From contig NC_133158.1 of the NCBI RefSeq assembly GCF_040802235.1, forward strand, positions 165,327,401 to 165,391,400: a stretch of DNA of 64,000 bases, written 5' to 3'. The translations under genes and the position numbers were made by a program. This DNA is from Manis javanica (taxonomy: Eukaryota > Chordata > Mammalia > Pholidota > Manidae). Positions 6,986-54,112 of this stretch are shown here, one piece after another. Every line of letters starts with the position of its first letter. The stretch's first letter is position 1. Below the pieces are notes generated by a model that ran no database searches, was not told where the DNA came from, and saw only the letters and a list, made by a program, of their open reading frames with translations.

Positions 6986-8602
6986 TTTTTTAAAATTTTG
7001 TTATCATTAATATACAATCACATGAGGGACATTGTGGTTACTAGATTCACCCCATTATCGAGTTCCCACCACATACCCCATTACAGACACTGTCCATCAG
7101 CATAGTAAGATGTTACAGAGTCACTACTTGTCTTCTCTGTGCTGTACTGCCTTCCCCGTGCCCTCTGCCCCCAGCTACATTATGTGTACTAATCGTAAAG
7201 CCTCTTTTTCCCCTTCTCCCTCCCTTCCCACCAATCTTCCCCAGTTCCTTTCCCTTTGGTAACTGTTAATCCATTCTTGGGTTCTGTGAGTCTGCTGCTG
7301 TTTTGTTCCTTCAGTTTTTTTTGTTCTTATGCTGTAGAGATGAGTGAAATCATTTGGTACTTGTCTTTCTCCACCTGACTTATTTCACTGAGCATAATAT
7401 ACCCTCTAGCTTCATCCATGTTGTTGCAAATGGTAGGATTTGTTTTCTTCTTATGGCTGAATACTATTCCATTGTGTATATGTACCACATCTTCTTTATT
7501 CATTCATCTACCGATGGACACTTAGGTTGTTTCCATTTATTGGCTATGGTAAATAGTGCTACAATAAACACAGGGGTGCATATGTCTCTTTCAAACTGGG
7601 CTGCTGCATTCTTAGGATAAATTCTTGGGAGTGGAATTCCTGGGTCAAATGGTATTTCTATTATTAGTTTTTTAAGGAACCTCCATACTGCTTTTCACAA
7701 TGGTTGAACTAATTTACATTGCCACCAACAGTGTGGGAGGGTTCCCCTTTCTCCACATCCTCACCAACATTTGTTGTTGTCTGTCTTTTGGATGGCAGCC
7801 ATCCTAACTGGTGTGAGGTGGTATCTCAATGTGGTTTTAATTTGCATTTCTCTGATGATTAGCGATGTGGAGCATCTTTTCATGTGCCTGTTGGCCATCT
7901 GAATTTCTTCTTTGGAGAATTGTCTGTTCATATCCTCTGCCCATTTTTTAATTGGCTTACTTGCTTTTTGTTTGTTGAGGTACATGAGCTCCTTGTTTAT
8001 TTTGGATGTCAAGCCCTTATCGGATATGTCATTTATGAATACATTCTCCCATACTGTAGGATGCCTTTTTGTTCGACTGATGGTGTCCTTGGCTGTACTG
8101 AAGCTTTTTAGTTTGATATAGTCCCACTTGTTCATTTTTGCTTTTGTTTTCCTTACCCAGGGAGATATGTTCATGAAGAAGTTGTTCATGTTTATATTCA
8201 AGAGAGTTTTGTCTATGTTTTCTTCTAAGAGTTTTATGGTTTCATGACTTACATTCAGGTCTTTGATCCATTTTGAGTTTACTATTGTGTATGGAGTTAG
8301 ACAGTAATCCAGTTTCATTCTCTTGCATGTAGCTGTCCAGTTTTGCCAACACCAGCTGTTGAAGAGGCTGTCATTTTCCCATTGTATATCCATGGCTCCT
8401 TTATTGTATATTAGTTGACCATATATGCTTGGGTTAATATCTGGACTCTCTATTCTGTTACACTGGTCTATGGGTCTGTTCTTGTGCCAGTACCAAATTG
8501 TCTTGATTACTGTGGCTTTGTAATAGAGCTTGAAGTTGGGAAGCGAGATCCCCCCTGCTTTATTCTTCCTTCTCAGGATTGCTTTGGCTACTTGGGGTCT
8601 TT
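6986..8602 (-). mobile_element. 5'-truncated L1 with target duplication
   Basis: On the minus strand this is the 3' portion of L1: the ORF2 C-terminal region from about 8600 down to 7760, then the rest of ORF2 and the 3' UTR to 6986. Flanking 14-base direct repeats CACTCATCA(C/T)TATT occur at 6972-6985 and 8603-8616 with one mismatch, as expected for target-primed insertion. A reading frame of about 283 codons remains open from about 8612 to 7761, starting in flanking DNA. It covers only the post-RT tail of ORF2, without the RT catalytic motif. This is the least decayed truncated L1 in the left half. Confidence 0.9.
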
Positions 8603-8649
8603 CACTCATCATTATTATTTAACATTGTTTTGCAGCTACCAGCCAATAC

Positions 8650-10260
8650 AATTAGACAAAAGAATGACATAAGTATTTGGAATGGTCCTTGAGAGGTAAA
8701 ACTACCATTATTTACAGATAATTATGACTGTTTACAGAGAAGCTCCAAGAAATCTACAGGGAAGCTCTTTCAAAAAAGGAGGGTATTGATTTGGGGAATA
8801 CAAAATTCATACTCAGAAATTAACAGGTTCATTATATACAGAAAATGTTAACTATTTAGAAGCTAGAATGGAAATGATTACCCCACTTACAATAGCAATG
8901 ACAGAAAAAAAACAGGAAGGAATTCAGGAAGAAATATGTAGGGATAAAAACAAATGGAAAAAATACCAAGTTCTTGAACAGCAAAGTACAAAACCTTAAC
9001 AGTATCAACTGCCCCCAAATTATTCTACAAATATAAAGAATCACAACAAAATTAACAACAGTATTTTATCCTTCTAGTTAGACCAACTGATTCAATACTT
9101 AATATGGAATATAAGACCTAAAACTATAAACCTCTTCACAGGGCAGAGTTGCATGAAATTGGATCTGGTATTGATTCTCAGATATGCCACCAAAGGTAAG
9201 AAAAAACAGCCAAATGTGACTGTGAAATTTAAAAAATTTTTCACATCAAGACACTTACCCACAGAGTAAGAAGGCAACCCATGGAATGGAGGAAAGTATT
9301 TGCAAATCATGTATCTGATAAAGGATCAATATCCAAAATACACAGATAACTCCTAAAACTCAATGACAAAAAAAAAAACCTGATTCAAAAATGGGCAAAG
9401 GAATTGAATGGATATTTCTTCAAAGAAGATACATACAAATGGCCAATAAGCACATGAAATATATTCAACATCACTAATCATTATAGAAATGCAAATCAAA
9501 ACTAGAATGAGATACCACCTTCTACCCATAAAGATGGCTACTATCAAAAAAAAATAAGTGTTGACAAGGATGTGGAGAAACTGGAACTCTTGTGTACTGT
9601 TAATAGAAATATAAAATGGAACAGCTGCTATAGAAAACAGTATGGTAGTTTCTCCAAAAAATTAAAAATTAAAAATAGAATTACCACATAATCCAGGAAT
9701 TCCACTTCTGGGTATATATTCAAAAATATTGAAAATAGAGTCTCAAAGAGATATGTGTACACCCATAACCCCAGCAGCACTATTCACAAAAGCTAAAACA
9801 TGGATACAATCCATGTCCATCAATGGATGAATGGGTAAGCAAAATGTAATAAATACATACAATGGAATAGTATTCAACCTTAAAAAGGAAGGAAATTCTC
9901 ACACATGCTACACCATGGACAAAACTTGAGGACACTATGCTAAGTAAAATATACCATTCACAAAAAAGACAAGAACATATGATTCTACTCCTATGAGATA
10001 TTTAAAATGGTCAAAATCATAGAAGCAGAAGGTAGAATGGTGATTGTCAGGGGCTGGGGTAAGGGGTGGAAATGGGGGCATTAGTGTTTAGTGGGTACAG
10101 ATTTCAGTTTTACAAGATTAAAGAGTTATGGATATGGGTGGTGGTTATATGACAATATGAATGTACTTAATACCACTGAACTGTTTGTTTAAAAACGGTT
10201 AAAGTGTAAGTTTTATGTTATGTATATTTTAATACAATAAAAAAATTTTTCTTTAAGGAC
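8650..10260 (+). mobile_element. Old L1, ORF2 3' half and 3' end
   Basis: Degraded L1 ORF2 can be followed on the plus strand: the 'attatatacagaaaatgtt' and 'ccccacttacaatagcaatg' region near 8830-8890, 'tatttgcaaatcatgtatc' near 9297, 'ggaattccacttctgggtat' near 9695, and the tail near 10240. Numerous indels break every frame. It lies just right of the younger minus-strand L1. Confidence 0.72.
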
Positions 10261-16624: not shown

Positions 16625-17985
16625 TCCATGCCCTTTTTTATTGGGATATAGTTGAAATACAATTCTATATTGATTTCAAATGTACACATAGTGACTTGAT
16701 AATTATAAACATTACTAGATGTTTGCCATGGTAAGTGTAGTTACCCTGTTACCATATGAAGATATTATTGGTTATATTCTGTATGTTGTACTTACATTCC
16801 TCTAACTTGTTTTACAATTTCCAATTTGCACCTCTTTATCCCCCCCTTCACCTATTTTGCCCATTCCCCACACCCCCTCCCTATGGTAACCAACAGTCTG
16901 TTGTCAATATTTATGGGTCTATTTCTTTTTGTTTTATTTTTTTAGATTTCACACGTAAGTGAAATTACATGGTACATTTGTCTTTCTCTGACTGGCTTAT
17001 TTCACCTAGCATGATTCCTCTAGGTCCATCCATGTTGTTGCAAATGGCAAGATTTCCTTCCTTTTTTGGCTGAGTAATATTCCATTGGGTACATGAACCA
17101 CATCTTCTTTATCCATTTATCTATTAACGGGCGTTTGGGTTGCTTCCATATCTTGGCTATTGTAAGTAATGCTGCAGTGAACATAGGTGTGCATGTATCT
17201 TTTCAAATTAGTGATTTTGTTTTCTTTGGTCAATTCCTAGAAGTGGAAATGCTGGGTCATATGGTATTTCTTTTTTAGTTTTTGGAGTTACCCCATATAG
17301 TCTTCTATAGTGGCTGTACCAATTTACATTCCCACCAACAGTGTAGGAGGGTTTCCTTGTCTCCACATCCTCACCAACACTTGTTATTTTTTTGTCTTTT
17401 GGATAATAGCCATTCTGACTGGTGTGAGGTGATACCTCACTGTGGTTTTGATTTCCATTTTCCTGATGATTAGTGATGTGGAGCATCTTCTCATATGCCT
17501 GTTGGTCATTTGTATGTCTGCTTTGGAAAAGTATCTATTCAGGTCCTCTGCCCATTTTTTAATTGGATTATTTGGTTTTTTTTGGTGTTGACTTGTATGA
17601 GGTCTTTATATATTTTGGGTGTTAGCCCTTTATTGTATGCATCATTTGCAGATATATTCTCCTACTCAGTAGGTTGCCTTTTGTTTTGTTGAGGGTTTCC
17701 TCTGCTTTGCAGAAGCTGTTTAGTTTGATGTAGTCCCACTTGTATTTTTGCTTTTGTTTCCCTTGCCTGGGAAGACCTGTCCAGAAAGAAATTTTCTCAT
17801 GCTGATGTCCATGAGATCCTTGCCTATGTTTTCTTATAAGAGTTTTAAGGTTTCATGTCTTACATTTAGGTCTTAATCCATTTAGAATTTACTTTTGTGT
17901 ATGGCATAAACAGTAATCTAGTTTCATTTTCTTGCATGTAGCCAACCAGTTGTCCTGACAATATCCTTCTCTATCAGAGGTAGTA
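16625..17985 (-). mobile_element. L1, 3' part, older 5'-truncated copy
   Basis: The minus strand carries the L1 ORF2 C-terminal region and 3' UTR. Landmarks seen on the plus strand as reverse complements include 'ccatccatgttgttgcaaat' near 17028, 'gtatcttttcaaattagtg' near 17194, and 'catcctcaccaacacttgtt' near 17366. Frames are broken throughout. It ends just left of the retrocopy insertion at 18107. Confidence 0.85.
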
Positions 17986-18720: not shown

Positions 18721-19849
18721 ATATGGCACACTAACATTTGCTGGAATTTTACTGATAGAAGTAAATCATCATCTTAAAAATTCATGTCATCATTTTTTTT
18801 TTGAGAGGGCATTTCTCATATTTATTGATCAAATGGTTAACAACAATAAAATTCTGTATAGGGAACTCAATGCACAATCATTCATCAACCCAAGCCTAAT
18901 ACTCAATAGTCTCCAATCTTCTGAAGCATAACGAACAAGTTCTTACATGGTGAACAAGTTCTTACATAGTGAATAAGTTCTTACATGGTGAACAGTGCAA
19001 GGGCAGTCATATCACAAAAACTTTTGGTTTTGATCATGCATCATGAACTATAAATAATCAAGTCAGATATGATTATTCATTTGATTTTTATACTTGATTT
19101 ATATGTGAATCCCACATTTCTCCCTTATTTTTTTTTTAATAAAATGCTGAAGTGGTAGGTAGATGCAAGATAAAGGTAGAAAACATAATTTAGTGCTGTA
19201 AGAGGGCAAATGTAGATGATCAGGTCTGTGCCTATAGACTAAGTATTAATCCAAGCTAGACAAGGGCAACAAAACATCCACAGATGCAGAAGATTTCTCT
19301 CAAAACAGGGGGGGATGAGGTTCTAAGCCTCACCTCTGTTGATTGCCAATTTCTCACCTGATGGTCCCCCTGCAACTGTGCCTGTCTTAGGTTGTTCCTC
19401 CCTTGAGGAATCTTACCTGTCTCTGGCTAACCAGCCGTCTTCTGGGGCCATATGGGGATATGTAAAGTTGGTAAGTGAGAGAGAAGCAATATTCTTTGAA
19501 AAGGTTAGCTTTTTACTTCTTTGCAGATTTATGCCCTGTGGCTTCTATGCCCAACATTTGTCTTGAGGTATCTATCTTTACCACTTGGAAGAATTATGAT
19601 ACTCAGTAATTTTCGATATGAGGCATGGATTCTACTAAAGAGCTGTAATTAGGAAGGAAGAAGAAAAGCTATAGAAGTAGCAGACAGAAGAAAACATGGG
19701 AAGATTGATCATTTCTTTGACATAACTTCTTGTAGAGTAACATAAGCATGTATAGGTTTTAAGAAACTACTAATTAAATTGTGTACACACATTAACAGAA
19801 TAGGAATACAGATACATAACAAAAGCAGACCTACAATTACCGGCCATAT

Positions 19850-29858: not shown

Positions 29859-29864
29859 GGACAT
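29859..29864. repeat. 6-bp target site duplication, left (GGACAT)
   Basis: GGACAT directly abuts the left LTR and is repeated exactly at 37879-37884. Six-base duplications are typical of betaretroviral integrases. Confidence 0.95.
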
Positions 29865-29931
29865 TGTCGCGCGCCCCGTCCTCGCCGGCAAGAACAGCAC
29901 GCAACAACAGCAGGATTCTTCTGCAGAAAGC

Positions 29932-29937
29932 TTTATT
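29932..29937 (-). terminator. Proviral polyadenylation signal AATAAA
   Basis: AATAAA on the minus strand, about 60 bases downstream of the TATA box and about 67 bases before the LTR end. This spacing gives an R region of roughly 55-60 bases and a U5 of about 50. Confidence 0.8.
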
Positions 29938-29996
29938 CTTCAGCTCTTTGTGAAACAAATGAGTTGGGCAGGACCCAGAGGGGAAGGAGAGGCTTG

Positions 29997-30004
29997 CTTA
30001 TATA
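29997..30004 (-). promoter_or_regulatory. TATA box of the 3' LTR
   Basis: TATATAAG on the minus strand, with a CCAAT box about 70 bases upstream. The 5' LTR has the same box at 37684-37677. Confidence 0.8.
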
Positions 30005-30198
30005 GTTCTCATGCTCTGACCTGGTTGGTGCGGCTCCATATGCCTTATTAGCATAACCATTTGGTGGGTCTCATTGGTCCTTATGCCAAGGCGCAATTAG
30101 CATGTAGTTTAGTGGTGTGGGATGATTTGTCATTAGGAAGTTTGGGGCCTTCCGGCTGCCCTGCATGGGGCGCTATTTTCTGAGCGCGGCTGCCAACA

Positions 30199-30212
30199 TC
30201 TCCCCCTTTTTT
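30199..30212 (-). other. Polypurine tract for plus-strand priming
   Basis: On the minus strand AAAAAAGGGGGAGA directly abuts the TG of the 3' LTR, exactly where the second-strand primer must lie. Confidence 0.92.
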
Positions 30213-30544
30213 GTCTAACAGAAGCTCAAGGCGGAACTTGCCAGCAGAGGCGGAGACAGAGGCCTGACCTCCATCATACTTCCTGATGCCCCCTTTTTGG
30301 AGAGGGGTTCTGGGCATCTACCCCTATGCAGTCAGGCATGCCTCTCAGAGGGGTCCAAGACCTCTTGCAGTGCTTTGCCTCGCATCCTCTGGCTGGCGTT
30401 GGGACCGCTTGGTACAAAGGGTTTGGACCCTTTTTCTCAACCCTCTTGCACCATGAGCTTCTTAAAGAAAGCTGTAATTAAGCATTGAGGTACTCGGGCC
30501 TGGTGCAGTGCCACATGGGCTCAGGGTGCAAGAGCTACCTCAAG
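30213..30544 (-). other. Proviral 3' untranslated region between env and the polypurine tract
   Basis: About 330 bases with no sizeable minus-strand frame. In simple betaretroviruses an RNA export element can sit here. I see no diagnostic repeat and do not claim one. Confidence 0.5.
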
Positions 30545-32320
30545 CTAAAGCCGAGCTTCTTTCTTAAGCATGTTGAGCCACACTTGGGGAGAGGCGCCAA
30601 CGTCTATCGCCATTAGGGCTTGAGCAAGGATCACCTTGTCCTGCTTATGTTGGTTGCGGAGTCTGCATAACAACCAGAGTAAGAGCATGAGACCTCCAAG
30701 CAGGAACACGCCCATCCCAGCCATGCCCGCCCACTCCTTGACGTGGGAGAGAGCTCTGAGGAACCAGGAAGAGAGTCCTTCCGCTACGGAGATATCTAGA
30801 CGGGTGGAGTTGATGTGGATAATTTCTCGCCGCAGCTCTTCTAGTGTCCCATCGAAGTCTTGGGACCAGTTTCCTGAAAGATACTGGGACAGGTCTTGTG
30901 ACAGATTAGCTGCCCGTGTAAAATTTTTATATTGAATGCTAGTGATGCAGAGGGCACGATATTTCCGCTCACATCCCAATTGGGCCATTTGCCAGAGCAC
31001 CTCCATTTGTTCCTCCACGAGATCTATGCGTTGATTGAGGATCATTATTCCTCCTTTCAGTTTGCCATCAAGTGTGGACTGTTGGTCCAGGGCAGAAGCT
31101 ACTGAGGCTGCAAGGTTATTGAGCTCTGTAGCCGATTTGATGGAGGTGTCTAAAGCTATACCAGCGGCGGTGGCTGCGACCGCGGTCGCGGAGATCAGGA
31201 GCACTATGGCGGCTGTAACACTGAAATCGCGCCTTTCTCGAAACAGAGTCATGGTGTTAGGGGCGTCTACGGGAACAGGGACCCAACGGGGGATGCGGAC
31301 TACCAAAGCATTGGTAAAGTTACGCGCATCCCAACACTGAGACAGAAAGCAGGTTTCATTGGAGCAGGAGTCAAAGCTACTATTGGATAAGATAAACAGA
31401 AATGGGGGGTATACGCATACTGGAGAAGGTGGAAAAAGGGAATTAGGTGACTCTGGACCTGATTTTGCTGAACACGTGTAGTTCTCGTTGTTATGGGTCA
31501 TGATCATGTTCCAGTGTGCGCGCATGTGGTTATTCTCGCACCAAAAGGTGATATTTTTTACACCGATTCCCCCACCCTGGAGGGCGGAAAAGGGGGAGAG
31601 GTCGGTACACGAGCCATTGACTCCACACAGCATCCATTTATGGAAGGGGTTCATGCTCAGCTGCTGACGAAACTCGCCTTCAAGCACCTTTACTGGCCAC
31701 CAAGCCTCATTGGCTGGCCGTCCCTCCATATCTGGGGAGATGGTAAACTCCTGCCTCTCAGTTGCCCACGTTACTACAGTTGACTGACAGTCAGTCCAGG
31801 GCCACAGCTCTCCCTCATAGTCGCCCACACAATGGGAGGCATATTTGGGTTGACGAGGCCTGTCGGTGGAATTGTTCCTGGGAGAGTGTACAAATGTGCC
31901 ATTGATCTAGAGAACCATCTGGTGGATAGTCATGTTCTTATAGGACGGGCTCCCTTCCTTATTAGGCCCTTCAAATTTAGCTGACATAACGGGGAGGCTA
32001 CTGGCCTCTAGAATTATGTCACTGAACCATCCGTATTTCCTCCGTTTCAGGGAGATACAGCCAGCTAGATTCTGAGTGGTGAAGCATAATGACCCATTAG
32101 TTACGAAGGATCGGTTTTCTCCCAGGGGAGCTACTAGGGTGTCTTTAACTAAGTAGGGCAAGTTCATACTAGTATTGGTAGTGAAAAAGCGCGGAAAAAC
32201 GGCTGCATTGAAACGGACAGGCATAGGCTTAGGAAAGGCAGACAGGATTCCCCATCTCAATACTCCCTGAGTCGGGGTCTCCAGTGTCAGGAGCAGGGTC
32301 AGGAGGTACAGCGAAGTCAT
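30545..32320 (-). pseudogene. env: Betaretroviral env with one in-frame stop
   Basis: One frame from ATG at 32320 to the stop at 30545, broken once by TAG at 31909-31907. The first 137 residues begin with a hydrophobic signal-like segment ([11 protein letters not shown]). After the stop, 427 codons stay open. They hold N-glycosylation sites, a furin-like RERR (residues 197-200 of that part) and a hydrophobic fusion-peptide-like stretch (201-224). A CX7C loop (C286, C294), a membrane span (about 368-388) and a short cytoplasmic tail follow. Env would mediate receptor binding and membrane fusion. The start overlaps the end of pol by 92 bases. Normal expression would use a spliced RNA. The stop prevents a complete precursor from this copy. 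Confidence 0.92.
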
Positions 32321-34858
32321 CTCCTTTGTTTAGGACTTTCCTCGTTAGGCGCTCCGGGATCCAGAAGGGATTTTCTTCACCCTGGGGGAAAACACACACA
32401 GCTCCCCTGGATCTGATTATGATTGGATCCGGGCCCTTCCATTGGTTAGATAACACGTCCTTCCATTTTACTAGTTCTTGTGGGTCTTTTGGCCACTGAT
32501 TATGGCGATCCGCTGCTGTATGGCTTTGAGCATCCAGATTCAAAAAATTTATAGTGAAAAGTGCTAGGGCTATGGCAGTTTTTGGTGTGGGGGGTATATC
32601 TTCAATTCCCCCTTTTTGTTTAAGTAAATAGGATTTGAGCGTGCGGTTCGCGCGTTCCACAATCCCTTGACCCTGTGGGTTGTAGGGAAGGCCAGTGATA
32701 TGTTTTATCCCCATGTGATGACAAAATTGAGCAAATTTTGTAGAGGTATAGGCTGGGCCATTGTCTGTTTTCAGAATCTGTGGTAACCCCCATGCGCTCC
32801 AAGCTTCAAGGCAGTGCTGGATGACATGGGAAGCTTTCTCTCCTGACAATGGGGAGGCAAAGATGACTCCTGAACAAGTATCCACGGATACATGTACATA
32901 TTTCAGTTTCCCAAAAGACGAAATATGCGTCACATCCATTTGCCAAACTTGTAAAGGCCTAATACCTCTGGGGTTGATCCCAACATGAGGTGTGGGAAGG
33001 AAGCTGCAGCAATGTTGGCAGCTAAGGACAATGTTCCTAGCTTCGGCCCTGGTTATGCTAAACCGCTTGCGCAGTGTTTCGGCAGTGACATGAAATTGTG
33101 TATGGAATTTTGAAGCTGTGGTGATAGGGTCTAGCAGGGGAAAAGCTATATTTCTGGTTGCGAGGTCTGCCAGGTGGTTGCCTTGGGTCATAGGCCCGGG
33201 AAGGCCTGAATGTGCTCTGATATGAGTTATATACAAAGGAGATTGCCTATGAAGTAGTGCTGATTGTATCTGTTTGAACAAAGTGGCTACTGGGCTGGAC
33301 GCTTTGATTAGCCCGGCCACTTCTAGAGATTTGACTGCATTAACTACATAACAGGAGTCAGACACAATATTTAAAGGTTCAGGAAAGATTTGTAGGACCT
33401 CTAAGACTATGCGACATTCCACTATTTGTGGAGTGTCAGGCGTGTAGCCTTTTGTCACAACTTTGCCATCATGGACATAGGCACCTGTGCCTGTCTTAGA
33501 CCCGTCCGTGTAAACTGTTTTTCCATGAGGCAGCGGGGTTAGGCTAGTGACCCGAGGAAATACTAGGAGATGATTTTTGGCGAAGTTGATGAGGGGATGT
33601 TTAGGGAAATGATTATCAAAGGTTCCTGAGAAACTGTAAGCAAGTATGGCCCAATCATCGTTCATAGCACATAATACTTGTATCTGTTCTATGCTGTAAG
33701 GGGTTATAATTTTAGCTGGAGCCTCTCCGAAATGTGTCATGGAGGTTTTTACTCCTCTCAAAGCAAGTTTGGCCACGGCTGCTGGATAGTACTCTATTGT
33801 CCTAGCCTGAGAGGCTTGGGGATGAATCCAGATCAGTGGGCCGTGCTGCCATAAGACTGCTGTTGGCAGCTCTGGGGTGGGAAGGACACACAACTCAAAG
33901 GGTTCATTCGATTGCACTCTATTTAATTGTGCTGTCATCAAAGCCTGTTCTACTTTGCGAATGGCTTGTAATGCCTCAGGTGTGAGGGAGTGCGGTGACG
34001 TTAGTTGTGGGTCTCCTTCTAGGGTTTTAAATAGTGGAGTCAATTCAGTGGTGGGTATCTTTAAGTATGGGCGCAACCAATTAATATCCCCTAGGAGTTT
34101 TTGGAAGTCATTCAAATTTCGCAATTGATTATGTCTTATCTCAAGCTTTTGGGGGCAAATTACATCTGTGTAAATGGTTGCTCCTAGGAATTTGCTAACA
34201 CTAGATTTTTGGACCTTCTCGCTTGCTATATTCAGTCTCCAATTTTCTAGGGATCTAGTGAGATCTATATATGCTTCTTCTATTTCCGCTGGTTGTGGGG
34301 AGCAAAGAAGGATGTCATCCATGTAATGGATGATCTTTAGCGTGGGATAGGTCTTACGAATTGGGTCTAGCGCTCGCTGAACGTACAGTTGACATATGGT
34401 GGGGCTATTTGCCATTCCTTGAGGGAGGACCTTCCACTGAAATCTGGCATCGGGTTGTTCATGGTTAATAGCTGGCAAAGTAAAAGCAAATCTTTCCCTG
34501 TCCTTGGAGCTTAGAGGTATAGAAAAGAAACAATCTTTAATATCTATTATGAGCACTTTCCATTCTTTGGGTAAGGCAGAGAGGAGTGGCAGTCCCCGTT
34601 GTACGGGTCCAAGCATTCTCATTTGAGCATTTACTGCTCTCAGATCATGAAGCAACCTCTATGATCCTGACTTTTTCCTGATTACAAATATGGGTGTGTT
34701 CCATGGGGACACAGAGGGTTCTAGGTGTCCCACTTGGAGCTGCTCTTGCACTAAGCAATGAGCTGCTTCTAATTTAGGGGCCACTGAGGAACCCATACGG
34801 CCTCCTCTGTGAGCCAAGGTATGGGCATGGCATCTTCAATGGCCCCTATGAAAAACTC
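32229..34858 (-). pseudogene. pol: Betaretroviral pol (reverse transcriptase, RNase H, integrase), broken near its start
   Basis: The pol frame opens by a -1 shift out of pro near 34851 and runs to a stop at 34771-34769. The frame then changes by one base near 34772-34778, and TAG at 34661-34659 interrupts the RT N-terminus. From 34655, 808 codons are open to 32229. RT motif A aspartate is at D38 and YMDD at 111-114. RNase H has D384, E413, D433 and D497. Integrase has an HHCC zinc site (H518, H522, C546, C549) and a DD35E triad (D574, D631, E667). All catalytic residues inspected are retained, so damage is confined to the first part of RT. The C-terminus overlaps env. Confidence 0.93.
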
Positions 34859-35646
34859 AGGCCGTGACGGTCATTCTTTACTTTGGGCAGGATGGTCTCT
34901 ATGTGTCCCTGTTGGTGTTTCCCCAGCCCCTTGCCAGGGATGTATCCCATGTCCATCATCATGCCTTGGGCGGGGGTGGAGTATTCATTAATGAGTTTGA
35001 GGCCTAAGTCTCTCATGACATCCCTCCCCCATAAATTGACCGGTAGAGGGAGTACATAAGGGGTGACTGTACCCTCTTGTCCTTCAGGGGCTCGCCATTT
35101 CAATGGTTTGGCACTAATTGAAGGGCTTGACTCATATCCTAAACCTTGTAATGAATGTGAGGATTGGGTCACAGGCCACTTGGAGGGCCACCAGGTTGCA
35201 GAGATAATACTTTTATCTGCTCCAGTGTCTAGGATTCCCTCAAAGCTCTTTCCCTCTATTTGAAGAGTTAATTTTGGTCTGTCTGCTAAATCTAATACTA
35301 TGAAGGCTGAATCCCAGTCAGAGGAGCCGAAGCCCCTTTCTCCCCTCTCCGTGTTGGTAGCAGGATAATTGGCGTGGAGACTAGGTAAAACTAAGAGCTG
35401 GGCTATGCGGTCTCCCGGGGATATAGGATAGATTCCTCTGGGAGCCGAACACATGATTTTTACCTGTCCTTCATAATCTTGATCTATGACTCCGGAATGA
35501 ACTACCAGGCCTTTCAATGCAGCAGAAGAGCGCCCTAGGAGTAACCCAATGGTATTTGGTGGTAGGGGGCCTTTAAAGTCTGAAGGGATAGGCTGAACTC
35601 CCATCTGTGGAGTCAACACTATTCTGGTGGTGGCACGGATGTCCAA
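34846..35646 (-). CDS. pro: Retroviral dUTPase-protease with G-patch (pro), open
   Basis: Continuous 266-codon frame, entered by a -1 shift from gag. It opens further upstream, and position 35646 is a TTG, not a true start. Residues 1-110 form a dUTPase with GRSS (38-41), the GVIDQDYEG motif (52-60) and the C-terminal RGERGFGSS motif (101-109). Aspartic protease follows with active site LDTGAD (139-144), where D140 would be catalytic. A G-patch (about 232-247, GYIPGKGLGKH) ends the chain. dUTPase hydrolyses dUTP and protease matures Gag and Pol. This is the only proviral gene without a visible lesion. Its expression would still depend on the broken gag. Confidence 0.92.
   Translation of the reverse strand: MDIRATTRIVLTPQMGVQPIPSDFKGPLPPNTIGLLLGRSSAALKGLVVHSGVIDQDYEGQVKIMCSAPRGIYPISPGDRIAQLLVLPSLHANYPATNTERGERGFGSSDWDSAFIVLDLADRPKLTLQIEGKSFEGILDTGADKSIISATWWPSKWPVTQSSHSLQGLGYESSPSISAKPLKWRAPEGQEGTVTPYVLPLPVNLWGRDVMRDLGLKLINEYSTPAQGMMMDMGYIPGKGLGKHQQGHIETILPKVKNDRHGLSFS
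34849..34858 (-). promoter_or_regulatory. Probable pro-pol slip region
   Basis: Just before the pro stop the minus strand reads GAGTTTTTCA then TAG (stop at 34848-34846). The -1 frame opens directly into RT-like sequence here. The T run is a plausible slip site, but it is not a canonical X XXY YYZ heptamer in the pro frame. Confidence 0.5.
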
Positions 35647-37374
35647 TCCCGCGGAACCTGAAGTGGCTCTCCTTGGGGGGCCTGGTTGTTCCCGAATGAC
35701 ACTTGCGTGCTGGTTGCCCCATATATTTGCGGGCCCTGGTGACGGGGGCCCCTCTGGGCGTTTTTTGGCAACTCTAAGGGTTTCCCTTCTATATCTTTAA
35801 TAGACCGGCACTCATTAGCCCAATGCCTGCCTTTCTTACACTTAGGGCACAACTCAGGGGTCTTTTGGGTTGTTTGTTCTGAAGCTGGGCTCCTACACTC
35901 TCTCTTTATATGTCCTAATTTCCCGCATTGAAAGCATTTGATACTTCTGTTAGTGATCCTGGCTTGTTTGTGGCTCTGTAATATGGCTGCGGCTAGGCCC
36001 GCATTGGTGAGTGGCCCTCCTATTTCTCTACAGGCTTTCAACCAGGCATGTATCCCTTTTTGTTTCCAGGGTGTTATCGCCTGTCTGCATTCCTTGGTAC
36101 ATTGTTCAAACACTAATTGCTCCACTAGGGGCATTGCTTGTTCCTGATCTCCAAATATTCTGCCTGCGGCCTCCATCATACGAGCGACAAAGTCAGAAAA
36201 TGGCTCGCTCAGCCCCTGAATAATTTTTGTCAAATTGCCTGATACTTCTCCTTTGTTGGTGAGGGCTTTCCATGCCTTGGCGGCGCACGTGTTTATTTGT
36301 GCATATACCTGTAAGGGGAAGGCGGTCTGGTCGGCTACCCACTGTCCTTGGCCCGTCAGCATATCATATGACCATGCAGGCTGTCCTTCGGCCGCGTTTG
36401 CGCGTGCCTGGGTCATGCTGATATCATGCCACAATGCCTTCCATTCTATGTATTGCCCCATACTAGAAAGGCATGCCTTAGTTACATATTGCCAGTCTGC
36501 GGGTGTCATGGCTGTCTCTGTTAATCTCTCAACTTGTGCTATGGTATAGTTAGCACTGACTCCATAAGCCCAAACGGATTCTGCTAACTCCTTAACTTGT
36601 TTATGGCTCAGGGGCTGGTGAGAGCGTACACCGTTATCCTCAAATACAGGAAACATTTGTCTAATTGCCTGAAGAGTATCTGGGTGGCAAAAGGAGAGTG
36701 CGCCACTCACGTAAGGTGGCGGGGCAAAGGGCGTCGGGGGACACCCTGCTTTCATTTTTTCCTTGGTCCGCTTTTCAACTTTGCTGGTTCCCTTACTTCT
36801 ACACTCTGCGGTTTTATTTTCTTCCCCTTCCTCTGCGGACGTTAATTCCTCCTCAGATTCCCTATTGGAGAGTTGGAGGTCCCTCAACTCTTTCCAGGGG
36901 TATTTACTATTTTCTCCGAGGCGATCGTCACTCGCTTCTCGGGGCTCTTTCGCTTTTGCCCTAGGCGGGCTTTCTCCCTCACTCTGAGGTTTCTTTACCT
37001 TCGTTTTTGTGGCCTTTTTTCGGCCGCGCGCGCTCTGTTTCCCGTTCCGTTTCTGACATGCTCTCTTGGATATCTGTCAATGCTCTCTGACCTTCTTTTA
37101 TTACCTTTTCACATCTCTCATCTTGCAGACAAGCTCTAATCAGTTTCCAGAGGGGCCTGGTGCCTCCCCTCAGGCTACCCTCCTCCTCCTCTCTATCAAG
37201 ATCTTTCCCCAGTTTGTCCCAGCTCGGGATTGAGAGGGACCCTGAACAAATGAACCAGGGGGCCACACGGTCTATCTCCTTCACAAAAGATCCTAAGACT
37301 TTGCTGGAGACCTTCAAGTTTCGCTCTTTGAGAGCTGTCTGCAGCGCCGTGACTAATGACGGTGCATTCCCCAT
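35619..37374 (-). pseudogene. gag: Betaretroviral gag, frameshifted between matrix and capsid
   Basis: Starts at ATG 37374 in strong context (CACCATGG) and encodes MGNAPS, a myristoylation-type N-terminus. The 131-codon matrix frame stops at 36981-36979. A second frame, offset by one base and open over the same interval, encodes capsid and nucleocapsid down to 35619. Counted from 36887, it has a PPPY late domain (56-59) and a major homology region (about 224-243). Two CX2CX4HX4C zinc knuckles follow (318-331 and 347-360). A six-A run near 37015 on the minus strand is a likely site for the single-base length change. The 36887 codon is TTG, so it is not a separate start. Gag would form the particle shell and bind genomic RNA. 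Confidence 0.93.
35760..35766 (-). promoter_or_regulatory. gag-pro programmed -1 frameshift site, A AAA AAC
   Basis: In the gag frame the minus strand reads CCA AAA AAC GCC, giving the heptamer A AAA AAC, a classical retroviral slip site. From it the -1 frame is open without interruption into dUTPase. GC-rich sequence with GGGGCCCCC and GGGCCC follows within 10-30 bases and could form the stimulatory structure. Confidence 0.88.
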
Positions 37375-37435
37375 GGTGCCTCCTTATTTACAGAGAACCA
37401 TCAACCATCATCCTAAAAAGCAGGGGCCTCTCGGA

Positions 37436-37441
37436 ACTTAC
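37436..37441 (-). other. Proviral major splice donor
   Basis: GAGGG-GTAAGT on the minus strand between the primer site and the gag ATG matches the 5' splice-site consensus. It is placed where the leader donor for env mRNA is expected. Confidence 0.75.
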
Positions 37442-37524
37442 CCCTCCAGGCTTTCTTCTGACCTGCAGTTCTGAATCCTCTCCAGATGTCTGAAGGGTCC
37501 TCCCTGTGCCGGTGATGTTCTGGT

Positions 37525-37542
37525 TCCCGGGATTCGGCACCA
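37525..37542 (-). other. Primer binding site, tRNA-Phe type
   Basis: TGGTGCCGAATCCCGGGA on the minus strand begins two bases after the 5' LTR. It matches the complement of the tRNA-Phe 3' end, as I recall it, at 17 of 18 positions. Betaretroviruses usually use tRNA-Lys. Confidence 0.8.
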
Positions 37543-37544
37543 CT

Positions 37545-37878
37545 TGTCGCGCGCCCCGTCCTCGCCGGCAAGAACAGCACGCAACAACAGCAGGATTCTT
37601 CTGCAGAAAGCTTTATTCTTCAGCTCTTTGTGAAACAAATGAGTTGGGCAGGACCCAGAGGGGAAGGAGAGGCTTGCTTATATAGTTCTCATGCTCTGAC
37701 CTGGTTGGTGCGGCTCCATATGCCTTATTAGCATAACCATTTGGTGGGTCTCATTGGTCCTTATGCCAAGGCGCAATTAGCATGTAGTTTAGTGGTGTGG
37801 GATGATTTGTCATTAGGAAGTTCGGGGCCTTCCGGCTGCCCTGCATGGGGCGCTATTTTCTGAGCGCGGCTGCCAACA
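37545..37878 (-). repeat. 5' LTR of the provirus
   Basis: 334 bp, identical to the 3' LTR except at 37823. It contains TATATAAG at 37684-37677 and AATAAA at 37617-37612. It would drive transcription of the full proviral RNA leftwards. Confidence 0.97.
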
Positions 37879-37884
37879 GGACAT
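37879..37884. repeat. 6-bp target site duplication, right (GGACAT)
   Basis: Exact repeat of 29859-29864. Confidence 0.95.
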
Positions 37885-39531: not shown

Positions 39532-39547
39532 TTCAGAAGGGATTTTT
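39532..39547. repeat. Target site duplication, left copy
   Basis: TTCAGAAGGGATTTTT, repeated exactly at 40487-40502. Confidence 0.93.
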
Positions 39548-40486
39548 TTTTTTTGAGAGGGCATCTCTCATATTTATTGATCAAATGGTTGTTAACAATT
39601 AACAACAATAAAATTCTGTACAGGGGACTCAATGCACAATCATTAATCAACCCCAAGCCCAACTCTCATCAGTCTCCGATCTTCTGAAGCACAACGAACA
39701 AGTTCTTACATGGTGAACAAATTCTTACATAGTGAATAAGTTCTTACATGGTGAACAGTACAAGGGCAGTCATCACAGAAACTTTCAGTTTTGATCACGC
39801 ATTATGAACTATAAACAATCAGGTCAAATATGAATATTCGTTTGATTTTTATACTTGATTTATATGTGGATCCCACATTTCTCCCTTTATTATTATTATT
39901 ATTATTTTTAATAAAATGCTGAAGTGGTAGGTAGATGCAAGATAAAGGTAGAAAACATAGTTTAGTGTTGTAAGAGAGCAAATGTAGATGATCAGGTGTG
40001 TGCCTGTAGACTATGTGTTAATCCAAGCTAGACAAGGGCAGTAATACATCCACGGATGCAGAAGATTTCTCTCAAAACGGGGGGTGAGGTTCTAAGCCTC
40101 ACCTCTGTTTATCCCCAATTTCTCACCTGATGGCCCCCCTGTGACTGTGCCTGTCTTAGGTTGTTCCTCCCTTGAGGAATCTTACCCGTCTCTGGCTAAC
40201 CAGTCATCTTCCGGAGCCATACAGGGAAATGTAAAGTTGGTAAGTGAGAGAGAAGCCATATTGTTTGAAAAGGTTAGCTTTTTACTTCTTTGCAGATTTA
40301 TGCCCTGTGGCTTCTATGCCCAGCATTTGTCTTGAGGTATCTTTACCACTTGGAGGAATTATGATACTTGGTAAATTCGATATGAGGCATGAATTCTATT
40401 TCAGGGTTGTAATTAGGAAGGAAGAAGAAAAGCTATAGAAGTAGCAGGCGGAAGAAAACATGGGAAGATTATTTCTTTGACATATC
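39548..40486 (-). mobile_element. L1-mobilised, 5'-truncated copy of an ERV 3' end
   Basis: Minus-strand sequence closely matching 18793-19730 of the larger retrocopy, bounded by a perfect 16-bp duplication. It has an AATAAA at 39578-39573 followed about 18 bases later by a pure A run (T run 39543-39554). Poly(A), 5' truncation and a long duplication identify target-primed insertion of a processed ERV RNA by L1 machinery, not proviral integration. It carries no Env-coding part. A plus-strand frame at 40141-40335 is antisense to the element and only mirrors the equivalent frame in the other copy. Confidence 0.88.
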
Positions 40487-40502
40487 TTCAGAAGGGATTT
40501 TT
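40487..40502. repeat. Target site duplication, right copy
   Basis: Exact repeat of 39532-39547. Confidence 0.93.
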
Positions 40503-48038: not shown

Positions 48039-48660
48039 ATGACCCTTCCTGAAACAAAATCCAAAATAAAAATCATTAACATGCTTATGGAGGTACGGAA
48101 AGATACTCAAGAACTCAGGAATGAATTCCGGTCGGAGATCCAACTGTTGAAGAGCACAATGGAGGGTGTTAAAAGCAGATTAGATATGGTGGAGGAGACA
48201 ATAAATGAAACAGAAATTAGAGAGGAGGAATACAAAGAAGCTGAGGCACAGAGAGAAAAAAGGATCTTGAAGAATGAAAGAACATTGAGAGAACTCTGTG
48301 ACCAATACAAACGGAACCATATTCGCATTATAGGGGTACCAGAAGAAGAAAGAGAGAAAAAGGGATAGAAGGTGTCTTTGAGGAGGTAATTGCTGAAAAC
48401 TTTCCCAATATGGGGAAGAAGATAGTCTCTCAGGTCATGGAGATCCACAGATCTCCCAATGCAAGGGATCCAATGAAGACAACACCAAGACATACAGTAA
48501 TTAAAATGGCAAAGATAAAGGATAGGGAGAGACTATTAAATGCAGCCATGAGAGAAATAAGATCACATACACAGGAAAGCCCATCAGGCTATCAGCAGAC
48601 TTCTCAGCAGAAACCTTACAGGCCAGAAGGGAGTGGCAAGATGTATTTAATGTAATGAAG
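48039..48660 (+). pseudogene. L1 ORF1 (RNA-binding chaperone), frameshifted
   Basis: The first frame (48039-48368) has a heptad-rich coiled coil (about residues 20-75) and the start of the RRM region (NHIRIIGVPEEE). It ends at a TAG. The C-terminal domain continues in another frame at about 48410-48655 (HRSPNARDPMKTTPRHTVIK). ORF1 protein normally trimerises and coats L1 RNA. This copy encodes only pieces. Confidence 0.85.
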
Positions 48661-49099
48661 CCGAAGGGCCTGGAACCAAGATTACTTTATCCGGTAAGAT
48701 TATCATTTAAATTTGACATTTAAATTTATCTATCATTAAACAATTCCCAGATAAGCAAAAGCTGAAAGAATTTACCTCCCACAAACCATCTCTACAGTCA
48801 ATTTTGGAGGGACTGCTACAGATGGAAGGGTTCCTAAGGTTTAATAGCTATCACCAGAGGTAATAAGACCACAGTAAAGAAAGTAGAACACCTAAATACT
48901 AATCAAATGCAAAATTAAATTAACAATCCCCGAAGTCAATCAAGGGGTAGAAAAAGAGTACAGAATATGATACCTAATATATAAAGAATGGAGGAGGAAG
49001 AAAAAGTAGGAGAAAAAGAACCTTTAGATTATGTTTGTAATAGCGTATTAAGTGAGATAAGTTAGACTCTTAGATAGTACGGAAGTTAAGCTTGAACCT

Positions 49100-52000
49100 T
49101 TGGTAACCACAAATCTAAAGTCTGCAATGGCAATAAGTACATACCTATCGATAATCACCCTAAACATAAATGGACTGAATGTACCAATAAAAAGACACAG
49201 AGTCACAGAATGGATAAAAAACAAGACCCATCAATATGCTGCCTACAAGAGACTCACTTTAAACCCCAAAACATACACAGCCTAAAAATGAAGGGATGGA
49301 AAAAGATATTTCATGCAACTAATAGGGAGAAAAAAGCAGGTGTTGCAGTACTTGTATCAGACAAAATACATTTCAAAACACAGAAACTCACAAGAGACAA
49401 AGAAGGACATTACATAATGATAAAGGGGTCAATCCAACAAGAAGATATAACCATTATAAATATCTATGTGCCCAACACAGGAGCACCTACCTATGTGAAA
49501 CAAATACTAACAGAATTAAAAGAGGACATAGAATGCACTACATTCATTCCAGGAGACTTCAACATTCCACTTACTCTGAAGGACAGATCAACGAGACAGA
49601 AAATAAGTAAGGACACAGAGGCACTGAACAACACATTAGAACAGATGGAGCTAACAGATATCTACAGAACTCTACACCCAAAAGCAGCAGAATACACATT
49701 CTTCTCAAGTGCACATGGAACATTTTCAAGAAAAGATCATATACTAGACCACAAAAAGAGCCTCAGTAAATTCATAAAGATTGAAATTGTACCAACCAGT
49801 TTCTCAGACCACACAAGTATGAAACTAGAAATAAATTATGCAAAGAAAATGAAAAAGCCCACAAACACATGGAGTTTCAGAACATGCTCCTAAATGACCA
49901 ATGGATCAATGACCAAATAAAAACAGAGATCAAGCAACATATGGAGACAAATGACAACAATAATTCAACACCCCAAATCTCTGGGACACAGCGAAGGCTG
50001 TGCTAAGAGGAAAGTATATTGCAATATAGGCCTACCTCAGGAAAGAAGAACAATCCTGTATGAACAGTCTAAACTCACAATTAATGAAACTAGAAAAACA
50101 ACAAATGAGGCCCAAAGTCAGTAGAAGGAGGGACATAATAAAGATTAGAGCAGAAATAAATAAAATCGAGAAGAATAAAACATAGAAAGAATCAGTGAAA
50201 GCAAGAGCTGGTTCTTCAAGAAAATAAACAAAATAGATAAAACCCCTAGCCACACTTACCAAGAAAAAAAGAGAGTCTACACACATAAACAGAATCAGAA
50301 ATGAGAAAGGAAAAATCACTACGACACCACAGATATAAAAAGAATTATTAGAAAATACTGTGAAAAATTATATGCTAACAAACTGGATAACATAGAAGAA
50401 ATGGACAACTTTCTAGAAAAATACAACCTTTCAAGGCTGACCAAGGAAGAAACAGGAAATCTGAACAGACCAATTATGAGCAACGAAATAGAACTGGTAA
50501 TCAAAAAACTACCTAAGAACAAAATGCCTGGACCAGATGGCTTCACCACTGAATTTTATCAAACATTTAGTGAAAACCTAATACCCATCCTACTTTAAGT
50601 TTTCCAAAGAGTAGAAGAGGGAATACTTCCAAACTCATTCTATAAGGCCAGCATCACTCTAATACCAAAACCAGGCAAAGACACAACAAAAAAAGAAAAT
50701 TACAGACCAATATCCCTGATGAACATAGATGCAAAAATACTCAACAAAATATTAGCAAACCGAATTCATAAATACGTCAAAAGGATCATCCATCATGATC
50801 AGGTGGGATTCATCCCAGGGATGCAAGGATGGTACAATATTTGAAAATCCATGAACATCATCCACCATATCAACCAAAAGTAGAACAAAAACCACATGAT
50901 CATCTCCATAGATGCTGAAAAAGCATTATGGAGGTTACTCAAAAATTTGTGGAACAAAATTCAACATCCATTCATGATAAAACCTCTCAACAAAATGGGT
51001 ATAGAGGGCAAGTACCTCAACATAATAAAGGCCATATATGACAAACCCACAGCCAACATTATACTTAACAGCGAGAAGCTGAAAGTTTTTCACCTAAAAT
51101 TGGGAACAAGACAAGGATGCCCACTTTCCCCACTTCTATCCAACATAGTACTGGAGGTCCTAGCCATGGCAATCAGACAATATAAAGAAGTAAAAGGCAT
51201 CCATTTAGCAAGGAAGAAGTTAAACTGTCCCTGTTTGCAGATGATATGATTTGTACATAAAAAACCCTTAAGAATCTACTCCAAAACTACTTGATCTAAT
51301 ATCTAAATTCAGCAAAGTTTCAGGATACAAAATTAATACACAGTAATCTGTGGTATTCCTATACACTAACAATGAACTAGCAGAGAGAGAGAAATCAGGA
51401 AAACAATTCCATTCACAGTTGCATCAAAAAGAATAAAATACCTAGGAATAAACCTAACCAAGGAAATGAAAGAACAATACCCTGAAAACTACAAGACACT
51501 CATGAGAAAAATTAAAGAAGATACCAATAAATGGAAACACATCCCGTGCTCTTGGATAGGAATAATTAATATTGTCAAAATGGCCATCCTGCCTAAAGCA
51601 ATCTACAGATTTGATGTAATTCCTATTAAAATACAACAGCATTCTTCAACGAACTAGAGCAGATCATTCTAAAATTCATATGGAACCACAAAAGACCTCA
51701 AATAGCTAAGGCAATTCTGAGAAGGAAGAATTAAGCTTGGGGAATTATGCTCCTCAACTTCAAGTTTGACTATAAAGCCACAGTAATCAAGACAGTTTGG
51801 TACTGGCACAAGAACAGACCCATAGACCAATGGAACAGACTAGAGAGCCCTGATATAAACCCAACCGTATATGGTCAATTAATACATGATAAAGGAGCCA
51901 TGGACATACAATGGGGAAATGACAGCCTCTTCAACAGCTGGTGTTGGCAAAACTGGACAGCTACATGCAGGAGAATGAAACTGGATTATTGTTTAACCGC

Positions 52001-52964
52001 ATACACAAAAGTAAACTCAAAATGGATTAAAGACTTGAATGTAAGTCATGAAACCATAAAACTCTTAGAAGACAACATAGGCAAAAATCTACTGAATATA
52101 AGCATGAACAACTTCTTCCTGAACGCATTTCCTCGAGCAAGAGAAACAAGACCAAAAATGAACTCATGGGACTACATCAAACTAAAAAGTTTCTGCATGG
52201 CAAAGGACACCATCAACAGAACAAAAAGGCATCCTAAGTATGGGAGAATATTTTTTTAAATGACATATCCAACAAGGGGTTCACATCCAAAATATATAAA
52301 GAACTTACTACACGCCTCAACACCCAAAAGCAAATAACCTGATTAAAAAATGGGCAGAGGATATGAAGAGACAGCTCTCCAAAGAAGAAATTCAGATGGC
52401 CAACAGACACATGAAAAGATGCTCCACATCACTAATCATCAGGGAAATGCAAATTAAAACCACAATGAGATATCACCTCACACCAGTAAGGATGGCCAGC
52501 ACAGAAAAAACTAAGAACAACAAATGCTGGCGAGGATGAGGAGAAAGGGGAACCCTCCTACACTGCTGGTGGGAATGTAAGCTAGTTCAACCATTGTGGA
52601 AGCAATATGGAGGTTACTCAAAAAACTAAAAATAGAAATACCATTTGACCTGGGAATCCCACTCCTTGGAATTTACCCTAAGAATACAGTTCCTCAGACT
52701 CAAAAAGATATATGCATCCCTATGTTTATTGTAGCACTATTTACAATAGCCAAGATATGGAAGCAACCTAAGTGTCCATCAGTAGATGAATGGATAAAGA
52801 AGAGGTGGTACATATACACAATGGAATACTATTCAGCCATAAGAAAGAAACAAATCCTACCATTTGCAACAACATGGATGGAGCTGGAGGACATTATGCT
52901 CAGTGAAATAAGCCAGGCGGAGAAAGACAAATGCCAAATGATTTCCCTCATTTGTGGAGTATAA
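49100..52964 (+). pseudogene. L1 ORF2 (endonuclease and reverse transcriptase), multiply broken
   Basis: The endonuclease N-terminus (SIITLNINGLN) starts near 49140, and the main endonuclease frame runs 49210-49893 with CLQETH, PGDFN and SDH motifs. RT pieces lie at 50401-50598 and 50896-51249. The FADD catalytic motif near 51237-51248 is in a different frame from the preceding RT piece. C-terminal pieces are at 51747-52259 and 52596-52964. At least four frame changes prevent a complete product. Confidence 0.9.
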
Positions 52965-53313
52965 CAAGGAAGCAAAACTGAAGGAACAAAATAGCAGCAG
53001 ACTCAGAGACTCCAAGAATGAAATGGTAGTTACTAAAGGGGAGGGGTGTGGGAAGGCAGGTGGGGAGAGTGGGAGAAGGGGATTGAGGGATATTATGTTT
53101 AGTACATATGGTGTGGGGGATCATGGGGAGAACAGTGTAGAACAGAGGAGGCACATAGTGAATCTGTGGCATCTTGCTGCCACAAGTGACTGCATTGGGG
53201 TATGGGTAAGGACTTGATAATATGGGTAAATGTAGTAATGACATTGTTTTTTCATGTGAAATCTTTGTAAGAGTGTATATCAATAATACGTTAATAAAAA
53301 ATTTAAAAAATAA

Positions 53314-54112
53314 GAATGACCACTATACAAAAGACAAAAAATAACAAGTGCTGACAAGGATGTAGAAAAAAGGGAACCCTTCTACAAAGTTGGTGGGAAG
53401 GTAAATTGATGCAACCACTGCAGAAAGCAATATGGATGTTCCTCAAAAAGCTAAAAAGTAGAAATACCATAAGACCCCATAATTCCACTTCTAGGAATTT
53501 ACACCCAAAGAAAACAAAATCCCTGATTCAAAAAGGTGTATACATCCCTATGTTTATTACTGCATTATTGAAAGAGCCAAGTTATGGGAGCAACCTAAGT
53601 GTCCATCAGTAGATGAATGGATAAAGAAGTGGTACATATACACAGTGGAATATTATTCAGCCATAAGAAGAAATCCTGTAATTTGCAACAATATGTATGG
53701 ACCTAGAGGGTATTATGCTCAGTAAAATAAGTCAGGCTGGAGAAAGAGACAAGTACCAAATGATTTCACTCATTTGTGGAACCTAAAAGCAAAACAAAAT
53801 GATCAAAATAGTGGTTAACTCATAGACACTGAGAAGAGACTGGTGGTTACCATGAGGGAGGGGTTGGGGTGGGTAGGGAGCATGAGGGGAATCAAGGGAC
53901 ACAAAAATTCTCCATCATAATATAAGTTGGTTATGGGAAGGTGATACAACATGGAGAATACAGCCAATGATTCTGTAACATCTCCCTATGTTGACAAATA
54001 GTAACTGCACTAGTAAGTGAGAATTTAATATGGGTAACTGTTGAACCACAGTGTTGTATACTTGAAACCAGTATAAGATTTTGTATTGATAGTTCAATAA
54101 AAAAAAATAATC
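53314..54112 (+). mobile_element. Older L1, right piece
   Basis: Resumes at the sequence interrupted at 46984. It carries the end of ORF2 ('atgaatggataaagaagtgg', 'ctcagtaaaataagtcaggc') and the 3' UTR, ending in an A-rich tail near 54105. All frames are decayed. Confidence 0.88.

What the first reader, a model, noticed from the sequence alone, without database searches (positions are those of the whole stretch)
29859..37884. Very young betaretrovirus-like provirus with LTRs differing at one CpG
Both 334-bp LTRs were compared base by base and differ only at 30143/37823, a CpG/TpG site. The 6-bp duplication GGACAT is perfect. LTRs are identical at integration, so the insertion is recent, or the LTRs were homogenised by gene conversion. 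The locus may be polymorphic in the host species. The combination of betaretroviral gene content with a tRNA-Phe-like primer site could mark a little-described lineage.
Basis: partly seen in the sequence, partly recalled or inferred. Interest (0 to 1): 0.85.

Follow-up and report, generated by a model that had tools for sequence, protein, structure and literature searches.

The report
Young IAPE-type provirus in a pangolin
This is a recently inserted, now broken copy of an envelope-bearing relative of the mouse IAP retroviruses, sitting in what is very probably a Malayan pangolin genome; IAP-like elements are already reported in pangolins, and the new point is that this one nests among rodent IAPs in the Pol tree.

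Summary
Confirmed: two 334-bp LTRs differ only at 30143/37823 (TpG/CpG) and carry a perfect GGACAT duplication. The element reads on the minus strand: LTR, PBS, gag, pro, pol, env, PPT, LTR. LTR divergence gives 0.68 My (95% range 0.02-3.8), and near-identical Gag, Pol and Env exist in databases. The 'unusual' tRNA-Phe-like primer site is the known IAP primer type (PMC7472051), and the two database Pol hits that carry a virus name are IAPs. Env matches Manis javanica at 99%, so the host is a pangolin, very probably M. javanica. Gag begins MGN and a beta-type env is present, as in IAPE. Gag, pol and env are broken. IAP-like pangolin sequences are in print (PMC10776870; probably ERV-Alpha-Mpen, PMC12584738). 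Pol nests among rodent IAPs, which suggests a rodent-to-pangolin jump. A caution: PMC12584738 reports an ERV-Alpha insertion shared by both pangolins despite young LTR dates, so LTR dates may run too young. Empty site and polymorphism went untested because the genome search did not complete.

The parts
29859..29864 (.). target-site duplication GGACAT, left copy
29865..30198 (-). 3' LTR, 334 bp, TpG at 30143
30199..30212 (-). polypurine tract directly before the 3' LTR
   Evidence: sequence
30545..31906 (-). env, main open piece (453 aa): furin-type site RERR, CX7C motif, GP41-type transmembrane unit
31907..32329 (-). env, N-terminal piece in the same frame, cut off from the rest by one premature stop; Env start aligns at 32320; no Pfam match of its own
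32229..34658 (-). pol, main open piece (809 aa): RT, thumb, RNase H, integrase; the 5' part (to about 34828) is separated by a frame change and a premature stop
34846..35796 (-). pro: dUTPase, retroviral aspartyl protease (DTG), G-patch; open
35619..37076 (-). gag, capsid-nucleocapsid piece (485 aa): p24, two CCHC knuckles, PPPY
36979..37383 (-). gag, N-terminal piece (matrix p10, begins MGN at 37374), in another frame from the rest of gag
37525..37542 (-). primer binding site, tRNA-Phe-like, 2 bases after the 5' LTR
   Evidence: sequence; match to mammalian tRNA-Phe recalled
37545..37878 (-). 5' LTR, 334 bp, CpG at 37823; TATATAA at LTR position 195, AATAAA at 262
37879..37884 (.). target-site duplication GGACAT, right copy

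Best explanation
It is a recently integrated, now defective germline provirus of an IAPE-type (env-bearing intracisternal A-particle) class II endogenous retrovirus, in a pangolin, very probably Manis javanica. It came from reverse transcription primed by a tRNA-Phe and integrase-made insertion with a 6-bp duplication (inferred from anatomy). The single LTR difference is most likely later decay of a methylated CpG (inferred). Gag, pol and env of this copy are each interrupted, so it cannot make its own full set of proteins, but near-identical proteins with open frames are in the databases. Its Pol nests among rodent IAPs, so a rodent-related virus probably entered pangolins across host orders (inferred).
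For: LTRs, duplication, PBS and PPT. Class II domain set with dUTPase, protease and G-patch. Pol: the two hits named IAP are 63% and 64% identical; unnamed P0001 is 100% over 809 aa. Env: two Manis javanica proteins at 99% and 98% over the whole query, M. pentadactyla 64% at best score, named rodents 34-53%. Gag: unnamed P0179 99% over 97%, M. pentadactyla 91% over 72% and 86% over 76%, Rattus norvegicus 65% over 96% and 74% over 71%. Gag, Env and Pol trees. MGN Gag start. RERR and CX7C, no CX6CC in the main env piece. IAP uses tRNA-Phe (PMC7472051 passages). Age 0.68 My at 2.2e-9 per site per year (the rate used in PMC12584738).
Against: Four disabling lesions sit beside almost identical LTRs; about 11 interior changes are expected at the LTR rate, so this is not excluded, but inherited lesions or assembly errors would also fit. 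LTR identity rests on one change in 668 bases, and conversion between LTRs cannot be excluded. PMC12584738 reports an ERV-Alpha-Mpen insertion orthologous in both Asian pangolins although it dates that lineage by LTRs at 1.41-3.47 My and the species split at about 16.4 My; if that lineage is this one, LTR dates run too young. Most Pol-tree rows are unnamed. The PBS differs from recalled tRNA-Phe at one of 18 positions. The species name rests on protein matches, not on the flanks.
Confidence: 0.88

Rival explanations
1. An older insertion whose two LTRs were homogenised by gene conversion.
For: LTR identity alone cannot tell the two apart. Four lesions lie in a supposedly young copy. PMC12584738 reports a shared ERV-Alpha insertion in two species split about 16.4 My ago, with LTR dates of only 1.41-3.47 My for that lineage.
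Against: The interior is also nearly identical to database proteins: Gag 3 mismatches in 472, Pol 4 in 848, Env 8 in 591 residues. That points to recent spread, which LTR conversion would not produce, although conversion between copies could. The duplication is intact.
Confidence: 0.1
2. A betaretrovirus proper (MMTV/MPMV type) or a separate new lineage that merely uses tRNA-Phe.
For: Shares class II domains with betaretroviruses. No betaretrovirus row was in the trees.
Against: The closest Pol, Gag and Env hits with an organism or virus name are IAP-named, rodent or pangolin proteins.
Confidence: 0.04
3. The pangolin lineage is an old, vertically inherited mammalian IAP line, not a jump from rodents.
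For: Both Asian pangolins carry the clade. In the Gag tree the rodent link is weak (85/60). PMC12584738 reports a shared ERV-Alpha insertion.
Against: In Pol it lies with Mus and hamster IAPs, with Nannospalax and rabbit outside. A clade of five rows (Mus twice, Nannospalax, Chinese hamster IAP, and P0044, whose host the listing does not show) without the pangolin is rejected (p-AU 3.2e-5; group named after seeing the larger tree).
Confidence: 0.3

Closest known systems
Mouse IAPE (IAP elements with an envelope)
   Same: tRNA-Phe primer (PMC7472051 legend), class II gag-pro-pol, env present; membrane-type Gag start recalled
   Different: Host is a pangolin; named rodent Env hits are 34-53% identical, the best over most of the query 51%; no row named mouse IAPE was among the hits
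Rodent IAP retrotransposons (mouse, hamster)
   Same: Two hits named IAP are 63% and 64% identical in Pol; tRNA-Phe primer
   Different: Classical mouse IAPs have lost env and altered the Gag N-terminus (PMC3197615 introduction); this one has env and an MGN Gag start
ERV-Alpha-Mpen of the Chinese pangolin (PMC12584738)
   Same: PBS-Phe, dUTPase, G-patch, thumb and IN_DBD domains, placed between alpha- and betaretroviruses, LTR dates 1.41-3.47 My, LTRs in the ERV2 group
   Different: The paper's text excludes it from the lineages with Cys-His box and PPPY, which this element has; sequences were not compared
ERV-Beta.a/b-Mpen (PMC12584738)
   Same: Class II ERV in a pangolin
   Different: PBS-Lys and gamma-type CX6CC Env; here PBS-Phe-like and CX7C

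Membership tests
IAP/IAPE group of class II ERVs | Pol groups with IAP Pol | tested here: met
   midpoint-rooted, no MMTV, MPMV or alpharetrovirus rows
IAP/IAPE group of class II ERVs | tRNA-Phe primer binding site | tested here: met
   sequence; 17 of 18 to mammalian tRNA-Phe, the tRNA recalled, not fetched
IAP/IAPE group of class II ERVs | 6-bp target duplication and LTR of about 330-340 bp (recalled features) | tested here: met
IAPE (env-bearing form) | env of the beta type present | tested here: met
   broken by one premature stop
IAPE (env-bearing form) | membrane-type (myristoylation-like) Gag start instead of an ER signal (recalled feature) | tested here: met
   MGNAPS start; myristoylation itself not tested
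IAPE (env-bearing form) | particles that leave the cell and infect through EphrinA proteins | not testable with these tools
   known for mouse IAPE (PMC3197615 abstract and passages)
ERV-Alpha-Mpen lineage (PMC12584738) | nucleotide identity to its consensus | not tested
ERV-Alpha-Mpen lineage (PMC12584738) | no Cys-His box and PPPY, as the paper can be read | tested here: not met
   window Gag has two CCHC knuckles and PPPY; the paper's sentence is ambiguous
Betaretrovirus with gamma-type Env | CX6CC motif in TM | tested here: not met
   no CX6CC in the main env piece; CX7C present

The most novel reading that the evidence does not exclude
An infectious, env-bearing IAPE-type virus crossed from rodents into pangolins. 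It has spread in the germline of M. javanica so recently that copies such as this one are still insertionally polymorphic. The 'Alpha' lineage reported from the Chinese pangolin would be the same IAP lineage, not an alpharetrovirus.
Probability: 0.4. Interest if true: 0.6.

Novelty: new member of a known kind. Interest (0 to 1): 0.4.

Why it matters
The introduction of PMC3197615 says that elements such as mouse IAPs, having lost env, can no longer colonise new species, whereas IAPEs survived as infectious elements. A young env-bearing IAPE-type family in a pangolin, nested among rodent IAPs, would be an example outside rodents of that form crossing orders. It also bears on how the pangolin class II ERVs in PMC12584738 should be named, and offers a possible insertion marker within a threatened species.

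Tried and rejected
Older ERV around the provirus: the pair 18793-19729 / 39545-40489 (89% identical) brackets it and looked like LTRs of an older host element. Rejected: each begins at a poly-T run, and copy B appears to have its own short flanking duplication, so they look like polyA retroposons.

Rodent host: considered because of the IAP match. Of ten SINE consensus sequences only MIR gave hits (three), and Env names a pangolin.

Marsupial host: considered from PMC11334065 (outline and passages); dropped.

Sister copies in IMG/VR: 4 scans of viral contigs (Pol, LTR start, Env, Gag) gave no confirmed relative; the tool notes that records near the window's genome may be left out.

Paper searches, 10 in all: searches found no paper; (IAPE with cross-species transmission) found 3, none opened. 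Passages of PMC4643047, PMC4637884 and PMC6466679 were seen and added nothing decisive.

Full report
What is there. The window holds one complete proviral structure at 29859-37884. The two LTRs are 334 bp each (29865-30198, 37545-37878) and differ only at 30143/37823, where the right-hand copy keeps a CpG and the left-hand copy has TpG. GGACAT stands directly outside both. This hexamer is not rare in the window (29 copies on both strands, 30.1 expected), so the evidence is its placement, not its presence. The element reads on the minus strand: the 5' LTR is the right-hand one, followed after 2 bases by the primer site at 37525-37542, and the polypurine tract at 30199-30212 lies directly before the 3' LTR.

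Genes. On the minus strand lie gag (36979-37383 and 35619-37076), pro (34846-35796), pol (32229-34658) and env (31907-32329 and 30545-31906). Pfam finds matrix p10, capsid p24, two zinc-knuckle families, dUTPase, retroviral protease, G-patch, RT, thumb, RNase H, integrase domains and a GP41-type envelope; the short N-terminal env piece had no Pfam match. The frames fit two successive -1 shifts, gag to pro to pol, as in class II viruses; candidate slippery words lie in both overlaps, but their significance was not tested. The main gag piece has PPPY and two CCHC boxes, and the main env piece has RERR and CX7C and no CX6CC. Gag begins MGN, a myristoylation-like start; 44 of the 120 listed Gag hits begin MG.

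Broken genes. Gag is split by a frame change, pol by a frame change and a premature stop near its start, and env by one premature stop; pro is open. Near-identical database proteins run through these places: Pol P0001 (869 aa; 4 mismatches in 848 aligned), Gag P0179 (585 aa; 3 in 472 for the main piece) and Env P0121 (591 aa; 8 in 591). So unbroken relatives exist. Whether the breaks are real, inherited or assembly errors was not tested.

Host. Env matches Manis javanica proteins P0121 (99%) and P0122 (98%) over the full query; the best-scoring Chinese pangolin protein is 64% identical. The host is a pangolin, very probably M. javanica; a close sister species is not excluded, because the flanks could not be searched.

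Family. Of 526 Pol hits, 120 were listed and 7 of these carry a name: P0044, an IAP Pol-related polyprotein whose host the listing does not show (63%); a Chinese hamster IAP (64%); two Mus spicilegus proteins (64% and 62%); Nannospalax (60%); rabbit (55%); and a record filed under Trypanosoma congolense (65%). Of 384 Gag hits, 120 were listed and 46 name an organism; by my count 32 of these 46 read 'IgE-binding protein-like', a name that I recall as an IAP-Gag annotation. M. pentadactyla Gag proteins reach 91% over 72% and 86% over 76% of the query, Rattus norvegicus 65% over 96% and 74% over 71%, with further Rattus hits at 47-51%. IAP elements use tRNA-Phe (PMC7472051, passages), and the PBS here matches mammalian tRNA-Phe, as I recall it, at 17 of 18 positions. 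The same paper calls IAP 'Gammaretroviridae' in passing; the domains found here are class II. Because env is present and Gag starts MGN, it resembles IAPE, the env-bearing form described as progenitor of mouse IAPs (PMC3197615: abstract and passages; introduction).

Trees. The Gag tree used 50 rows: the window, 39 of the 46 hits with an organism name (seven, mostly near-duplicates, left out) and 10 unnamed hits. It gives a 7-row clade of the window, three M. pentadactyla rows and three unnamed rows (100/100), inside a set of rodent, colugo and unnamed rows; its link to Rattus is weak (85/60). The Env tree used 57 of the 58 hits (P0178 left out; two Scotinomys rows were labelled unnamed by me) and gives a 14-row clade (100/100) of the window, two M. 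javanica, five M. pentadactyla and six unnamed rows, with the window beside M. javanica. The Pol tree used 49 of the 120 listed hits by the quick method: window and P0001 fall in a 23-row set (99) with the Mus spicilegus and IAP-named rows, most of the rest unnamed; Nannospalax and rabbit lie outside. A careful tree of 11 rows repeats this. A clade of five rows (P0044, two Mus, Nannospalax, Chinese hamster IAP) without the pangolin is rejected (p-AU 3.2e-5); that group was chosen after seeing the larger tree, the roots are midpoint roots, and no MMTV, MPMV or alpharetrovirus row was included. The most likely reading is transfer from a rodent-related virus into pangolins.

Age. One difference in 668 LTR bases gives 0.68 My at 2.2e-9 per site per year, with a 95% Poisson range of 0.017-3.8 My (the rate is the one used in PMC12584738). 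That paper puts the split of the two Asian pangolins at about 16.4 My, so on LTR dates this insertion should be absent from M. pentadactyla. Against this, the same paper reports five insertions orthologous in both species, one of them in the ERV-Alpha family, although it dates ERV-Alpha LTR pairs at only 1.41-3.47 My, and it infers integration in a common ancestor. If that lineage is this one, LTR dates run too young, through conversion or a slow clock. About 11 interior changes are expected at the LTR rate, enough for several lesions after insertion. Near-identity of the interior to other database proteins argues for recent spread.

What is already known. PMC10776870 (passages) reports that the most abundant group of differentially expressed ERV genes in Malayan pangolin skin was closest to mouse IAP. 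PMC12584738 (text parts 1-3 of 5 and passages) describes ERV-Alpha-Mpen in the Chinese pangolin with PBS-Phe, dUTPase and G-patch, numbered 1 to 13, and a position between alpha- and betaretroviruses; its RT tree puts it with alpharetroviruses, and the authors tentatively call it Group II. It is probably the same or a sister lineage. Two cautions: its sequence was not compared, and the paper can be read as excluding it from the lineages with Cys-His box and PPPY, which this element has. The word search for 'IAP' in that paper gave no occurrence. Three searches bear on print: pangolin with endogenous retrovirus (50 papers, 25 listed), Manis javanica with betaretrovirus (4 papers), pangolin with intracisternal A (2 papers). 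No listed title or abstract start names IAPE in pangolins; of those papers I opened PMC12584738, PMC10776870, PMC4643047 and PMC4637884.

Limits. The genome search failed in 9 of 9 identical requests, so sister copies, solo LTRs and the empty site could not be examined in the host genome; 4 of 4 viral-contig scans found no confirmed relative.

Verdict. A true, broken and, by LTR dating, young IAPE-type provirus: a new member of a known kind. The cross-order origin and the naming of the pangolin 'Alpha' lineage are the points worth following.

Noticed in passing
window 18793-19729 and 39545-40489: Two copies, 89% identical, of a roughly 940-base retroposon that starts at a poly-T run and holds about three copies of a 19-base tandem unit (GAACAAGTTCTTACATGGT); copy B appears to have its own short flanking duplication. 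Identity unknown.
   Followed up: partly
window 48046-49631 and 62416-64000: A 1.6-kb repeat pair (79% identical); open pieces at 49096-49893 and 62678-63079 match an endonuclease family and L1 ORF1 domains.
   Followed up: partly
window 3820-4542, 7029-8602, 9261-9951, 16939-17951, 51691-53802: A dispersed repeat with many diverged copies (about 65-86% identical); two open pieces scanned there (7761-8618, 51735-52259) had no Pfam match.
   Followed up: no
protein P0070: A protein filed under Trypanosoma congolense IL3000 is 65% identical to this Pol over 81% of it, in the range of rodent IAP; it may be mouse DNA contamination of that assembly.
   Followed up: no
Gag tree: Cetacean and colugo Gag rows each form clades among rodent rows, so IAP-type jumps between orders may be repeated.
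   Followed up: no
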